DNA from: a virus
Length of the DNA: 26,718 bases
Virus record (IMG/VR): IMGVR_UViG_3300035681_001763
Coordinates: 1 to 26,718 of that record
Direction: 5' to 3' (one strand)
Below are positions 18,942-23,209 of the stretch, piece by piece; the first letter of the stretch is position 1; every line of letters begins with the position of its first letter. Below the pieces are notes generated by a model that did no database searches, was not told the origin of the DNA, and saw only the letters and a program-made list of their open reading frames with translations. Position numbers and translations under genes: made by a program.

Positions 18942-19442
18942 ATGTCTGAGAAACCCGTATACGAAAAACTAGAAACTGAAACACCAAAAGCTTATGAAGC
19001 ATTTTGCGCTTATCGTGATATGGGTTCATCGCGATCGCTTCATAGGGTAAGGGACGAAGAGGGCAAATCTCATGGTACTTTAGAGAAATGGTGTAGAGAT
19101 CACAATTGGGTCAAAAGAGTTGAGGCTTACGACATAGACCAAGAAGCGATCGCTAGACAAATTTTAGAGGAAGAAAATAGAGAAGCTTACAGAGAAAAGT
19201 TGAGAAAGTATCGCCAAGAAAATGAAGAAATTGGCAATGCACTTCGAGCAACTGCTGTAATTGTGTTAAAGAAATTCAGAACATTTGCTAATGATTTAGA
19301 TCCTAAAGATATCAAGCCTAGCAATTCGGCTAATATTGTTAGAGCAATAGATACTTGTTTAACACAAGGCGATCGCTTGTTATCTGATTCTTTGGCAATA
19401 GAAAAACTATTACAACAGATGAGTTCTGATGAGGAAGATTAG
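18942..19442 (+). CDS. terS: terminase small subunit
   Basis: A 166-residue protein. The N-terminal half looks like the HTH of small terminases: YEAFCAYRDMGSSRSL, then HGTLEKWCRDHNWVKRVEAYD, where a Trp-basic-x-x-x-Tyr-Asp pattern ends the DNA-binding part. The middle is a long charged helix (about 70-105) and the C-terminus is acidic and helical, as expected for the oligomerisation and TerL-contact region. TerS recognises the packaging site and stimulates TerL. Its last 14 bases overlap the start of the large subunit gene, which supports the assignment. The ribosome-binding site is weak. Confidence 0.75.
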   Translation: MSEKPVYEKLETETPKAYEAFCAYRDMGSSRSLHRVRDEEGKSHGTLEKWCRDHNWVKRVEAYDIDQEAIARQILEEENREAYREKLRKYRQENEEIGNALRATAVIVLKKFRTFANDLDPKDIKPSNSANIVRAIDTCLTQGDRLLSDSLAIEKLLQQMSSDEED

Positions 19443-21018
19443 AGGCAAAGATATTATTCTTCAGGATATATATGCCGAAAATCCTTTGGTAGATTATCAT
19501 TCGCAAAAGTCAGATAAGCGATCGCATAAAGCCAAGCGAAGTATTCAGGATGAATTTATTGAACAGTTGTGGAAACCGCAAAAAGGATTCCAGCAAAAAG
19601 TTTATGAGTCAGAAGCGGATGAACTTTTAGTGGGTGGCGCGGCTGGACCGGGGAAGACGGCAGTTTTATTGATTGTGGCAACGCGATCGCATAGGAACTC
19701 GATTATTTTTAGACGGGAATATTCTCGACTCAAGGACGTAATTGAGAAAAGTCGCAGATTATTAAATTCTACTAGCGGTAGATACAACAGCACAGATAAA
19801 ATTTGGCGACTTCCTGGCGGGAGAACATTAGAATTTGGTGCGGTTCAATATGAAGATGACAAAGAAAACTATCGAGGTCGAGAGCATGATTTAAAAGGTT
19901 TTGATGAATTGACAGAATTTAGTCAGACTCAGTACGAATTTATTATCACCTGGAATCGTTCATCCGAACCTACTCAACGCTGTCGGATTATATCTACCTG
20001 TAACCCTCCATCTTCAACTGAGGGAGCGTGGATTATTGATTATTGGAGTCCTTGGTTAAAAGAGGATTATTCAGGCGATCGCGCATTACCCGGCGAACTA
20101 AGATGGTTCGCAACCTTAGATGGTGAATCTGTAGAAGTTCCCAATGGTGAAGCGTTTGAACATACCAATCAGGACGGAATAACAGAAACTATTATTCCTC
20201 GCTCTCGCTCATTTATCCCTGGTTCATTGGATGAAAACATCTACTTGCGAGATACCAATTATCGAGGGATGCTACAGCGATTACCTGAACCACTGCGATC
20301 GCAACTCTTGTACGGTTCATTCAAAACTGTTGCTAAGAAAGATGACCCTTGGCAGATTATTCCAACTGAATGGTACGACGCTGCTGTAGCGAGATGGAAA
20401 GAAGCTGCACCAGCCCCACAATCACATTTAGGAGTTGATGTGGCCAGGGGCGGAGATTGTTCAAGTGTAATTGCCGTAAGACATCATCATTGGCTTGCAC
20501 CATTAATAGAAATTCCTGGGAAGGATACACCTGATGGTGATTCTTTAGCTATGGAAATAATCAAGGTGATGCGATCGCAGAAAACAGAAATTAGGATTGA
20601 CGTGGTAGGAGTCGGTAGTTCTCCTTACGATTCTTTGAGAAGATTAAATGTTGAGCCAATTCCTATTAATGGCGGTGCTTCTGTTAAGGACGAAGACGGC
20701 AATCCCAAGAAAGATAGAAGTGGCGTTTTGCAGTTTTACAACCTGCGATCATATCTCTATTGGAATATGAGAGAAATTCTTGACCCCAAAAATAAAATGA
20801 ATATCGCTTTACCGCCTGACTCCAGATTAAAAGTAGAGTTGTTAGCACCGCGTTGGTCAGTCACAAAAGGTAGGACTGAATTTGGGGAAATCAGAGTCGA
20901 AAGTAAAGATGATATTGTTAAGAGAATCGGGCGATCGCCTGATAAAGCAGATGCCACGGTTTACGCATTTGGGGAGATAGAAAATGAATTGTCTTATGAG
21001 TGGATGCGGGAGATTTGA
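19429..21018 (+). CDS. terL: terminase large subunit
   Basis: A 529-residue packaging motor and nuclease. The ATPase part shows Walker A GGAAGPGKT (69-77) and Walker B with the catalytic pair D159-E160. A motif III-like ISTCNPPS follows. The C-terminal RNase H-like nuclease has three aspartates in the expected order: D337 (GVDVARGGD), D391 (IRIDVVG) and D508 (DKADA). TerL translocates phage DNA into the prohead and cuts it at the end. The start overlaps terS by 14 bases. The gene appears intact. Its stop codon (21016-21018) touches the first base of the CRISPR array that follows, so it is the last phage gene before the insertion-like segment. Confidence 0.92.
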   Translation: MRKIRGKDIILQDIYAENPLVDYHSQKSDKRSHKAKRSIQDEFIEQLWKPQKGFQQKVYESEADELLVGGAAGPGKTAVLLIVATRSHRNSIIFRREYSRLKDVIEKSRRLLNSTSGRYNSTDKIWRLPGGRTLEFGAVQYEDDKENYRGREHDLKGFDELTEFSQTQYEFIITWNRSSEPTQRCRIISTCNPPSSTEGAWIIDYWSPWLKEDYSGDRALPGELRWFATLDGESVEVPNGEAFEHTNQDGITETIIPRSRSFIPGSLDENIYLRDTNYRGMLQRLPEPLRSQLLYGSFKTVAKKDDPWQIIPTEWYDAAVARWKEAAPAPQSHLGVDVARGGDCSSVIAVRHHHWLAPLIEIPGKDTPDGDSLAMEIIKVMRSQKTEIRIDVVGVGSSPYDSLRRLNVEPIPINGGASVKDEDGNPKKDRSGVLQFYNLRSYLYWNMREILDPKNKMNIALPPDSRLKVELLAPRWSVTKGRTEFGEIRVESKDDIVKRIGRSPDKADATVYAFGEIENELSYEWMREI

Positions 21019-21563
21019 TTACCAATCACATGACATCCTCTGTTATTCCTAACTGTTATTCCTAACAAGATATTTATATATTTCTCCTACTTGCCAATCA
21101 CATGACATCCTCTGTTATTCCTAACTGTCACAAAATAATTTTTGTCTTAAAACTATTATTACTTGCCAATCACATGACATCCTCTGTTATTCCTAACGTC
21201 TGTCATAGCAGCAATTAATCTTTTTATTCAACTTGCCAATCACATGACATCCTCTGTTATTCCTAACTCTACTTTGGTTAATTTTCTTCCCTGTTCATTA
21301 GCACTTGCCAATCACATGACATCCTCTGTTATTCCTAACGACCGCCAAGTCTGAGGGGTTTTGTTTTGGGAGTTGTCATAATGCTTGCCAATCACATGAC
21401 ATCCTCTGTTATTCCTAACTGGTTTAGAAGGGGCGCGGCTCGGTGCGGACAACGCCTTGCCAATCACATGACATCCTCTGTTATTCCTAACTATCCTTCC
21501 GCATAATGCAGTCTATTATATTTGCGACTTGCCAATCACATGACATCCTCTGTTATTCCTAAC
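21018..21563 (-). CRISPR. CRISPR array, 8 repeats and 7 spacers, type V-U-like
   Basis: Repeats of 36 nt lie at 21018-21053, 21090-21125, 21162-21197, 21232-21267, 21304-21339, 21384-21419, 21456-21491 and 21528-21563. On the plus strand they begin CTTGCCAATCACATG and end GTTATTCCTAAC. Copies 2-8 are identical; copy 1 has two changes in its first four bases. Spacers are 36, 36, 34, 36, 44, 36 and 36 nt and all differ. On the minus strand the repeat begins with GTTA-GGAA-TAAC, a small stem with a GNRA-type loop. The degenerate copy lies on the terL side, so the leader side should face the nuclease gene and the likely transcription direction is minus, the same as the nuclease. No cas1 or cas2 and no AT-rich leader are visible. 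Confidence 0.93.
21054..21066. repeat. 13-nt duplication of the repeat end
   Basis: TGTTATTCCTAAC, the last 13 bases of the repeat, is repeated directly after repeat 1. The first spacer interval is therefore only 23 nt of unique sequence plus this copy, totalling 36. It duplicates the segment that forms the GTTA/TAAC stem on the minus strand. Confidence 0.8.
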
Positions 21564-21568
21564 CCCTG

Positions 21569-23209
21569 TCACCAGAGAGTAAGCTGTGTATGGTTTTGAG
21601 AGGCACTTTCCGAAGGTCGCTGTTTTTTTGGCATTTTCTTTTTATTTTTGGCTGTTGGATTGGCTGAAATTGAGTCATGGCAAGCAACCGAAGTTCCCAG
21701 AAATAATGAAGGATGATATGTGATTGGATCACCATATTCAGGTGATGGTGCTATTTCCGATCGCTCGGTCTTAGCTTCCTGATGACATTCCGTACTGGAA
21801 TCAGAGTCAGGCTTTCGGGTTTCCCCATGTTCCCACGCCCAAGCGCGGTACACTGTTTTAAATTCTTTCTGCCCTTTAATCAAGATGTTTTTCGCTGCAT
21901 TAGAATCGCGCCCATCTTCATAGCCACATTCTGTACAGCGATGGGTTCTTTGACTCAAGGCTTTTTTAATTTTAGCACCACAATTTGAACAGTCAACTGT
22001 AGTGTAATGAGCCGCAACTTTTACAAACTCTCTGTCAGTATCCTTGCACTTTGTTTCAATTTTACTAATCAAATCTCCCAAGGCAGCATCAGCAAAACTT
22101 TTATTTAATCCTGCTTTACGTTTTGCCCCATTCTGTTCATAGCCTTTACCATCCTCACGCTTTTTAGCTTTTGGCTTGCGACTAAGATTTTGTATTTTTA
22201 AATCTTCCATCACAATACCGGAATATTCCCGTACTACTTTAGTAGATAGCTTATGATTAAAAGCGTTACGACTGCGACGGATTTTTTCATGATGCAATGC
22301 AATCTTTTGATAAGTTTTCTTCTGGTTACATCCTCCTTTCTGTTGTCTGGATGCTTTACGCTGTAATCGTCTTAACTTAGTTTGTTGTTTCCTAAATAGT
22401 TTTGGTGGTGCAACTTCTCTACCTTGATCTGTCGTTATAACTGATAATAAGCCTGGATCAATTCCTACTGCTTTATCGGATTTTGGCAGGGATTCATTCG
22501 GAATATCAACACATACATGAAGATAGTATCCTGATGGTTCTTTGACTATTTTGGCACTACCCCATTCTATCCAATCATGTCTAGCAAATAAGCTTTTAAT
22601 TTTGAGTTTACCAAGTTTAGGAAATTGGATAAAGCCATTATCAGATCCGGGTATTCTTTCCGGTTTTAACAGTTTTGACTTACCGCCTGCATGAAGACTT
22701 GTGAGCGATCGCACTTTATCCTGCTTACCTTTAAATTTAGGTTTTTGAGTAGGACGTTTAGGGTCGCTGTATGCTTGCCATGCTTTTTTAAGTGTATCCG
22801 CCATACCCTCTTTAAATTCAGATGGTATATCAATTACAAATTGTGGAGAATTATCATTTCTAAAATATTTAAATTTCCCAGGTTCTTCAATGTTCCTGTA
22901 TTCTCTAATTGGACAATAAGGATAGCCACTTTTAGGACGGACAACACCACCACCGACTAATCTGATTTTCTCCCATTTCTCAGTAGTCTTACCCTTCTTA
23001 TCTGTGGTTTCAACTTTACGCCATTTCCATCGCAGTGGTAGTCCATCGGGGATATTGCGATCGCCTATTTGAGTTCTGTAATACTTCTGTCTATCAGCAA
23101 GTTTGAGAGATAGACCTTTATTCCACACCCATTTAATATCTTGCAGCCATTTATCAATAGTCTGTGACTGTGCGAGTGTGGGATAAATTTTAAATTCGAT
23201 AGTTTTCAT
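21569..23209 (-). CDS. TnpB/Cas12-like RuvC nuclease, candidate type V-U effector
   Basis: A 546-residue protein of the TnpB (IS605 OrfB)/Cas12 superfamily. The split RuvC site is intact: D251 (VGIDPG), E335 (VMEDLK) and D435 (GRDSNAAKN). A zinc ribbon with C407, C410, C425 and C428 precedes RuvC-III. TnpB proteins of about 400 residues use an omega-RNA to cut DNA; this one is longer because of an expanded N-terminal region (about 40-140) and a tail of about 100 residues. Its stop lies five bases from a CRISPR array, with no tnpA or cas1/cas2. This matches type V-U effectors, such as the cyanobacterial V-U2 (C2c8) group. It is convergent to terL. The alternative is a solitary tnpB next to an unrelated array. 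Confidence 0.85.
   Translation of the reverse strand: MKTIEFKIYPTLAQSQTIDKWLQDIKWVWNKGLSLKLADRQKYYRTQIGDRNIPDGLPLRWKWRKVETTDKKGKTTEKWEKIRLVGGGVVRPKSGYPYCPIREYRNIEEPGKFKYFRNDNSPQFVIDIPSEFKEGMADTLKKAWQAYSDPKRPTQKPKFKGKQDKVRSLTSLHAGGKSKLLKPERIPGSDNGFIQFPKLGKLKIKSLFARHDWIEWGSAKIVKEPSGYYLHVCVDIPNESLPKSDKAVGIDPGLLSVITTDQGREVAPPKLFRKQQTKLRRLQRKASRQQKGGCNQKKTYQKIALHHEKIRRSRNAFNHKLSTKVVREYSGIVMEDLKIQNLSRKPKAKKREDGKGYEQNGAKRKAGLNKSFADAALGDLISKIETKCKDTDREFVKVAAHYTTVDCSNCGAKIKKALSQRTHRCTECGYEDGRDSNAAKNILIKGQKEFKTVYRAWAWEHGETRKPDSDSSTECHQEAKTERSEIAPSPEYGDPITYHPSLFLGTSVACHDSISANPTAKNKKKMPKKQRPSESASQNHTQLTLW
21695..21770 (-). ncRNA. putative tracrRNA/omega-RNA-like scaffold with anti-repeat, inside the nuclease gene
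   Basis: The plus strand at 21699-21727 matches the reverse complement of the CRISPR repeat at 23 of 29 positions without gaps, including GTGATTGG and AGGATG. RNA made in the nuclease direction could therefore pair with the crRNA repeat; two of the six mismatches become G-U pairs. Directly beside it is a perfect 6-bp hairpin (ATCACC 21728-21733, GGTGAT 21741-21746), then a CCGA-GCGA-TCGG hairpin (21757-21768). The segment encodes residues about 481-505 in the nuclease tail. Ends are uncertain, and transcription or processing is inferred, not seen. Confidence 0.6.

What the first reader, a model, noticed from the sequence alone, without database searches (positions are those of the whole stretch)
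21018..23209. Minimal CRISPR system made of an array and one TnpB-like nuclease inside a phage region
Eight 36-nt repeats with seven unique spacers lie five bases from the stop codon of a 546-residue RuvC/zinc-ribbon nuclease with all three catalytic acids (D251, E335, D435). There are no cas1, cas2 or other cas genes, and no TnsB/TnsC/TniQ genes as in Cas12k transposons. This fits a type V-U-like system, of which the V-U2 group was described from cyanobacteria. Its position between terL and tail genes means the phage itself may carry it, perhaps against rival phages, plasmids or host genes. I infer the link from proximity and shared orientation; activity is not shown.
Basis: partly seen in the sequence, partly recalled or inferred. 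Interest (0 to 1): 0.95.

Follow-up and report, generated by a model that had tools for sequence, protein, structure and literature searches.

The report
Cyanophage type V-U2 mini-CRISPR locus
A virus of cyanobacteria carries a one-protein CRISPR system of a kind already reported in a related virus, and some of its stored guide sequences resemble the replication region of cyanobacterial plasmids, which suggests it is used against plasmids.

Summary
In detail: eight 36-nt repeats and seven spacers, 5 nt from a 546-aa TnpB-like nuclease with D251/E335/D435. It is a type V-U2 (C2c8) effector (PADLOC Cas12u2, 5.7e-160). Phage carriage is not new: cyanophage CL131 has the same system (93.6% aa; PMC6293099, passages).

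Three additions. (1) A candidate tracrRNA anti-repeat, reported absent in CL131, lies inside the effector's 3' coding end (21699-21727). Similar placement recurs in several V-U2 loci but not in L007, L008, L010, L011 or L013. (2) A near-identical phage shares the three distal spacers but not the effector-proximal ones, so the array turns over, although Cas1 was found in 0 of 12 phage records. (3) Spacers of this phage and its nearest kin match the replication region of Nostocaceae plasmids (7 of 102 spacers at E<=1e-5, 0.0 in shuffles). Spacers of three V-U2 systems encode CyRepA1 replication-protein peptides.

Most likely it attacks host plasmids. Cleavage, TAM and crRNAs are unshown; a relative's newest spacer matches phage DNA, including its own.

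The parts
21569..23209 (-). V-U2 (C2c8) effector gene, 546 aa, TnpB-like RuvC nuclease with zinc ribbon
   Evidence: ORF; PADLOC Cas12u2 5.7e-160; Pfam OrfB_IS605, Cas12f1-like_TNB, HTH_OrfB; catalytic residues invariant in 14 relatives
21018..21563 (-). CRISPR array: repeats at 21528-21563, 21456-21491, 21384-21419, 21304-21339, 21232-21267, 21162-21197, 21090-21125, 21018-21053 (the last degenerate and touching the terL stop codon)
21699..21727 (-). candidate tracrRNA anti-repeat inside the effector's 3' coding end
   Evidence: 79% complementary to the repeats; duplex -33.3 kcal/mol against shuffled repeats mean -22.0, sd 1.6; z -4.5 within 320 nt; co-variation with L006/CL131; cis fold z -2.78
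21126..21161 (-). spacer 6: 32/36 match beside the replication gene of linear plasmid contig G070:C58
   Evidence: an overlapping site is hit by CL131's terminal spacer
21340..21383 (-). spacer 3: weaker match (26/34) on the same contig, upstream of the replication gene, overlapping the site of L005 spacer 1 (30/36)
   Evidence: E 0.002 on its own
21054..21089 (-). spacer 7 (terminal, ends in a partial repeat): weak match in CyRepA1 genes, 20/22 in pANACY.06 and 17/17 in G070; peptide score within the control range
   Evidence: suggestive only
21492..21527 (-). spacer 1, most effector-proximal; L005 spacer 3 matches it 30/34 from the same start; no target found
21528..21745 (-). anti-repeat to first repeat, folding in cis as one closed stem
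   Evidence: MFE -55.5 kcal/mol, z -2.78, 1 of 200 shuffles as stable
19429..21018 (+). terminase large subunit gene against whose stop codon the array abuts
   Evidence: Pfam Terminase_6N; PHROG terL
21572..21586 (-). codons of the C-terminal QLTLW motif of the effector
   Evidence: conserved in most array-linked relatives, out of frame in CL131

Best explanation
A phage-borne type V-U2 CRISPR system. One transcript of the effector strand would carry the TnpB-like nuclease, a tracrRNA-like anti-repeat buried in its 3' coding end, and the array (transcription inferred). The anti-repeat pairs with a repeat to make a guide RNA like a split TnpB omegaRNA (pairing supported by sequence; processing not shown). 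The RuvC nuclease then cuts DNA that matches a spacer (inferred from intact catalytic residues). In this phage group the recognisable targets are the replication regions of host plasmids, at least one of them hairpin-ended and linear, so the system most likely removes or blocks a resident plasmid during infection. New spacers enter at the effector-proximal end; as no Cas1 was found in the phages, acquisition probably uses host Cas1-Cas2 in trans (inferred).
For: V-U2 profile match and intact RuvC/zinc residues. Anti-repeat in window (z -4.5), L005 (-6.0), L068 (-7.7), L057 (-3.4), L054 (-3.4) and others at similar distance from the first repeat, with repeat and anti-repeat co-varying between the window and L006/CL131. 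Spacer turnover between records that differ at 3 of 1641 nt of the effector and 0 of 1599 nt behind the array. Three independent array searches over 217 genomes led to the same 20-kb plasmid contig, which carries CyRepA1, a ResT/TelK resolvase and terminal palindromes of 102 and 104 bases. 7 of 102 spacers (6 independent) reach E<=1e-5 on seven contigs against 0.0 per set in 50 mononucleotide and 100 dinucleotide shuffles. CL131_s2, L068_s6 and L054_s11 encode CyRepA1 peptides with scores 59, 68, 57 against a control maximum of 43.
Against: No expression, cleavage or interference data. Matches are 83-92% over most of the spacer (one 33/33 stretch), to plasmids of other strains. The seven contigs were chosen because spacers hit them, so the shuffles do not correct for selection; the per-genome E-values (2.3e-9 to 4.8e-5) over 217 genomes do so only roughly. 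All seven hits come from the 28 spacers of the window group, none from the 74 of L007/L008/L010/L011/L013. CL131_s2 also matches CyRepA1-type genes on apparently chromosomal contigs. L008_s1 matches its own phage. L005's array also gave an unexplained 77-nt hit at 77% across spacer and repeat in G175. No TAM consensus. The anti-repeat is weak in CL131 (z -1.4) and L006 (-2.0), not seen in L007, L008, L010, L011, L013, and in the wider scan the Microcystis-type and CL131 values did not clearly beat shuffles. 24 spacers found nothing in 72,556 plasmid records.
Confidence: 0.55

Rival explanations
1. The array is mainly a weapon against rival or sibling phages, and the plasmid-like spacers are a minority.
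For: L008_s1, the most effector-proximal spacer of its array, matches 37/37 in its own phage genome and 36/37 in a related phage. L011_s18 is complementary to a V-U2 repeat plus adjoining sequence. Published virus-borne mini-arrays target related viruses (PMC11656645, passages).
Against: 99 spacers gave no match in 50,697 phage records except CL131's own array and one 22-nt chance-level hit. In 628 kb of related phage DNA with arrays masked, none of the window-group spacers was among the eight best hits apart from L006_s4 at E 0.003.
Confidence: 0.2
2. The plasmid matches reflect acquisition bias only: host Cas1-Cas2 samples multicopy replicating DNA, and the array has no selected function, or the effector acts as a gene regulator.
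For: No Cas1 in 12 phage records; a self-matching newest spacer in L008; the CL131 authors proposed a regulatory role (PMC6293099, passages).
Against: RuvC and zinc residues are invariant in 14 effectors; arrays of separate systems converge on one gene family; effector and array are retained in many phage records.
Confidence: 0.17
3. A homing element: the last repeat plus flanking terL sequence acts as a TnpB-style guide that targets the empty terL site of related phages and spreads the cassette.
For: In the window and L006 the last repeat runs directly into terL sequence. Position relative to terL differs among relatives, and cassette-free relatives exist.
Against: In CL131 the last full repeat is followed by a plasmid-like spacer, not terL. 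No element ends were recognised. terL in L006 is rearranged, so its junction may be a recombination scar.
Confidence: 0.08

Closest known systems
Type V-U2 CRISPR-Cas of cyanophage vB_AphaS-CL131 (MG209611; PMC6293099, passages read)
   Same: Phage-borne, effector 93.6% identical, 36-nt repeats, array downstream of the effector, near terL, no other cas genes reported
   Different: Different spacers and 9 of 36 repeat positions differ; about 0.4 kb from terL instead of abutting it; effector frame ends early through a TGA and a frameshift. The paper found no tracrRNA and named one spacer target as a primase pseudogene.
C2c8/V-U2 loci of cyanobacterial plasmids (Microcystis aeruginosa NIES-2481 p1)
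   Same: Same family (36% identity in A3), array of 23 repeats, anti-repeat-like stretch in the same place, one spacer encoding a CyRepA1 peptide
   Different: On a plasmid; a different repeat ending in GATTGAAAC
Type IV and V-M (Cas12m) CRISPR systems of plasmids (PMC11656645, passages)
   Same: Carried by a mobile element and directed at plasmids
   Different: Other effectors; Cas12m has an inactive RuvC, whereas here the acids are intact; the carrier here is a phage
TnpB / IS605 RNA-guided nucleases and the TranC intermediates (LaTranC, PDB 9jfo)
   Same: RuvC plus zinc-ribbon core; sequence matches to TnpB 8bf8 (8.3e-31) and LaTranC (9.2e-15); guide scaffold overlapping the 3' end of the gene (recalled for TnpB)
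   Different: A multi-spacer array instead of one flank guide; no transposase partner or element ends seen

Membership tests
Type V-U2 (C2c8) | Effector of the C2c8/V-U2 clade | tested here: met
   Best of 15 PADLOC families is Cas12u2, 5.7e-160; a PADLOC model named Cas12f follows at 5.9e-152. No tree was built.
Type V-U2 (C2c8) | CRISPR array next to the effector | tested here: met
Type V-U2 (C2c8) | No adaptation genes in the locus | tested here: met
   Cas1 in 0 of 12 phage records, most of them possibly fragments; Cas2 not searched
Type V-U2 (C2c8) | Found mainly in cyanobacteria (PMC6293099, passages) | tested here: met
   Named relatives: Aphanizomenon phage, Dolichospermum, Microcystis, Chroococcidiopsis
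Type V-U2 (C2c8) | RNA-guided activity | not testable with these tools
   needs experiment
Cas12k (type V-K CAST) | Inactivated RuvC (PMC11656645, passages) | tested here: not met
   D251, E335, D435 present and invariant
Cas12k (type V-K CAST) | tnsB, tnsC and tniQ genes nearby | not tested
   No profile search for them was made; the ORF list was only read by eye
IS605-type TnpB element | Single guide at the element end, no array | tested here: not met
   An eight-repeat array is present
IS605-type TnpB element | Recognisable transposon ends | tested here: inconclusive
   Comparison with cassette-free L019/L020 and with L006 gave no clear ends

The most novel reading that the evidence does not exclude
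Cyanophages carry a TnpB-derived CRISPR system as a plasmid-eviction weapon, refreshed with new spacers through host adaptation enzymes. Arrays of separate V-U2 systems on phages and plasmids converge on the CyRepA1 replication protein and the flanking replication region of cyanobacterial plasmids, some of them linear, guided by a tracrRNA encoded inside the nuclease's own coding end.
Probability: 0.42. Interest if true: 0.8.

Novelty: new member of a known kind. Interest (0 to 1): 0.6.

Why it matters
I found no study of V-U2 activity, guide RNA or targets in the searches named in the report. A guide-RNA candidate and a likely target make the system directly testable: effector, anti-repeat RNA, repeat-spacer RNA and a CyRepA1 plasmid. 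If right, a phage uses a one-gene CRISPR system against host plasmids, with spacer turnover it cannot perform alone, and an intermediate between TnpB and Cas12 has a definable job in nature.

Tried and rejected
Left open: L007_s4, 29/32 over part of the spacer, in a gene that reads like a radical-SAM enzyme (name recalled); a hit of 26 spacer-5 bases plus repeat in G084 and a 77-nt hit at 77% across spacer and repeat in G175; CL131_s5 on a 7.7-kb contig of unknown nature, 30/32.

Led nowhere: spacer 1 as exact/degenerate pattern in IMG/VR and as codon-degenerate pattern in 217 genomes; the source of L011_s18; 24 spacers against 72,556 plasmids; L011 array against 217 genomes; the first genome-contig scan. 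A strong complementarity between L007-type repeats and effector codons for QFPKLGK is unexplained. The beta-clamp reading of QLTLW (consensus recalled) stays a note, because CL131 has it out of frame. The AlphaFold model is poor (mean pLDDT 53.6; residues 453-546 below 50), so I ran no fold search.

Counting notes. The 102 spacers are the 101 distinct spacers of ten arrays (L003 and L004 counted once) plus CL131's terminal one, added after its flank was seen to match. Window s6 and L005_s5 are one spacer at two lengths, so 7 hits are 6 independent ones. Searches covered 99 (one terminal, one trailer spacer dropped); one search used 24. The output was cut in the middle; the comparison with phage DNA was repeated with arrays masked, which revealed L008_s1. 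Other masked hits there (L010_s7, L010_s2, L008_s4, L013_s22) seem to lie just beyond arrays, in decayed trailer ends; I did not test that further.
Full report
Observation. The window is a 26.7-kb virus record. Pfam gives OrfB_IS605, Cas12f1-like_TNB and HTH_OrfB. The best PADLOC family is Cas12u2, that is V-U2 or C2c8, at 5.7e-160. Terminase small and large subunits precede the array.

Already known. One of 50,697 phage records matches the cassette DNA: cyanophage vB_AphaS-CL131, effector 93.6% identical. Its 2018 description (PMC6293099, passages read) already calls it a phage-encoded type V-U2 system, with 10 spacers, no tracrRNA found, and one spacer partly matching a DNA primase pseudogene of Nostoc piscinale. 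Phage carriage of V-U2 is therefore not new. A search for cyanophage, CRISPR and V-U2 together gave that paper and one review, which repeats it as targeting the host genome. I saw no paper on targets or tracrRNA of V-U2 in the listings. The library holds only open-licence papers, and two relevant ones (PMC10691335, PMC12171694) are not held.

Relatives. IMG/VR gave 11 loci with the protein and 30, partly the same, with a profile. Genome contigs gave none at first, then a Dolichospermum circinale scaffold (L057) and a Microcystis contig (L058). Three groups emerge: window-like (L003-L006, CL131); about 70-75% identical (L007, L008, L010, L011, L013, L057); and about 36-42% (L068, L072, Microcystis-type and others). 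Arrays reach 28 repeats in the phage records of the first two groups. Two terL relatives, L019 and L020 (83% DNA identity up to the terL stop), carry no cassette in records of 60 and 52 kb. In CL131 the cassette lies about 0.4 kb behind terL; in L006 it lies within a rearranged terL 3' end. The cassette is thus a variable accessory; how it moves is unknown.

Candidate tracrRNA. Positions 21699-21727, in the effector's last codons, are 79% complementary to the repeats. I scanned for the best duplex between repeat and the region from 700 nt upstream of the effector to the first repeat. In the window it lies 175 nt before the first repeat (-33.3 kcal/mol; shuffled repeats mean -22.0, sd 1.6), in the 41%-identical L068 at -185 (-43.0; mean -22.2, sd 2.6), in L006 at -190 (-28.8; mean -26.2, sd 1.0), and in five of seven Microcystis-type loci at about -205, where it did not clearly beat ten shuffles. 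In CL131, L007, L008, L010, L011, L013, L057, L058 and L078 the best duplex lay elsewhere. Restricted to 320 nt before the array, z is -4.5 (window), -6.0 (L005), -7.7 (L068), -3.4 (L057), -3.4, -2.8, -2.6, -1.8, -3.3 (L054, L071, L069, L073, L076), -2.4 (L078, other position), -2.0 (L006), -1.4 (CL131), and -0.5 to 0.9 in L007, L008, L010, L011 and L013. The window repeat pairs at -33.3 with its own anti-repeat but at -26.9 and -24.8 with those of L006 and CL131. Their repeats pair at -28.8 and -27.1 with their own and at -19.6 and -15.1 with the window's; L006 and CL131 are interchangeable. Anti-repeat plus first repeat folds as one closed stem, z -2.78, 1 of 200 shuffles as stable. This resembles a TnpB omegaRNA split in two (recalled comparison).

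Spacer turnover. L005 differs from the window at 3 of 1641 nt in the effector ORF and 0 of 1599 nt behind the array; an ungapped comparison upstream of the effector gave 594 of 1400 differences, which I did not resolve. Yet its three effector-proximal spacers differ from the window's four, while three distal ones are shared, one of them 2 nt longer. One proximal pair, window s1 and L005_s3, matches at 30 of 34 from the same start. So spacers seem to enter at the effector side, and homologous sites are sampled more than once. Cas1 was found in none of 12 phage records: ten with an array, L012 with effector only, and cassette-free L019; apart from CL131 they may be fragments.

Targets, DNA. Over 217 Nostocaceae genomes the window array's best hit is spacer 6, 32/36, E 1e-5, on a 20,076-base contig, G070:C58; the next (3.4e-4 and weaker) lie partly in repeats. 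The CL131 array, searched separately, hit an overlapping site on the other strand with its terminal spacer, 36/39, and a second copy 33/33. The L005 array hit the same contig at two places, and window s3 (26/34, weak alone) overlaps the L005_s1 site. The contig carries CyRepA1 (NF042913, 3.2e-65), a ResT/TelK telomere resolvase (1.5e-42) and perfect palindromes of 102 and 104 bases at its two ends: a hairpin-ended linear plasmid by its anatomy. A related plasmid, pANACY.06, also has CyRepA1 and a protelomerase. CL131_s2 matches 9 of 217 genomes at 86-89% over its full 36 nt. I read five of these sites, all in long ORFs of similar sequence, and profile-tested two, both CyRepA1 (G071, G174); several lie on chromosome-sized contigs. 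L006_s5 hits the 22.5-kb contig G071:C29 at 36/39, the contig that also has the CL131_s2 site. CL131_s5 hits a 7.7-kb contig of unknown nature at 30/32. In all, 7 of 102 spacers (6 independent) reach E<=1e-5 on seven contigs; shuffles give 0.0 per set. All seven come from the 28 spacers of the window group, none from the 74 of L007, L008, L010, L011 and L013. The contigs were picked because spacers hit them, so the decisive point is that three arrays, searched separately over 217 genomes, met on one 20-kb contig. 165 further spacers of 11 loci gave no hit at E<=1e-4 on the contigs in hand and one at 2.9e-4, L068_s6 in CyRepA1.

Targets, protein. Translations of 267 spacers were scored against 17 CyRepA1-type proteins. 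L068_s6 (QWGCFKPDKPR, 68), CL131_s2 (GTGISLDTQHF, 59, identical to G071) and L054_s11 of a Microcystis plasmid system (LSLHYFLTTGKP, 57) exceed all controls (reversed proteins at most 36; five shuffles at most 43). The next two, 43 and 42, are within the control range, as is window s7 at 34. L068 and L054 effectors are 41% and 36% identical to the window's, so separate V-U2 systems hold spacers against one gene family.

Against. In 628 kb of related phage DNA with arrays masked, L008_s1, the most effector-proximal spacer of its array, matches 37/37 in its own genome and 36/37 in a related phage. So acquisition does not spare phage DNA in that relative. No TAM emerges from the flanks. The true plasmids of the phages' hosts are not in hand. 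Plasmid replication regions may simply be over-sampled.

Verdict. A new member of a known kind (V-U2 on a cyanophage), with a guide-RNA candidate and a plausible plasmid target that make it testable.

Noticed in passing
L068 and L072 (records G016, G017): Two V-U2 effectors in tandem in one virus record, frames of 569 and 637 aa.
   Followed up: no
L167 (Microcystis LSC13-02 contig C171) and L166 (C262): A V-U2 effector ORF sits between a Cas6 gene and a long array, next to an IS605-type TnpB ORF; its repeat recurs with 1-3 mismatches in a second array on contig C262. This hints at shared processing or adaptation with a class 1 system.
   Followed up: partly
L055, L056 (Chroococcidiopsis plasmids): Proteins annotated C2c8 lack the first RuvC Asp and the zinc ribbon, and no repeat array was found nearby.
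   Followed up: partly
L011:9003-9038 (spacer 18): This spacer is complementary to a V-U2 repeat plus adjoining sequence, as if taken from another V-U2 array; its source was not found in IMG/VR.
   Followed up: partly
L008:7772-7809 (spacer 1); L044:13840-13876: The most effector-proximal spacer of this phage array matches its own phage genome 37/37.
   Followed up: partly
window:21572-21586 and relatives: C-terminal QL[ST][LI]W motif in most array-linked effectors, absent from three arrayless TnpB-like proteins (L082, L084, L086) and from L077; resembles a sliding-clamp-binding motif (recalled); out of frame in CL131.
   Followed up: partly
L013 array spacers 6, 9, 16; L007_s14/L011_s14; L007_s17/L013_s25: Spacers within one array and in different phages sample homologous sites, on either strand; targets unknown.
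   Followed up: no
L002 (CL131) terL, record 58844-61651: The terL frame is 937 codons with its two homologous parts separated, which looks like an intein or other in-frame insertion.
   Followed up: no
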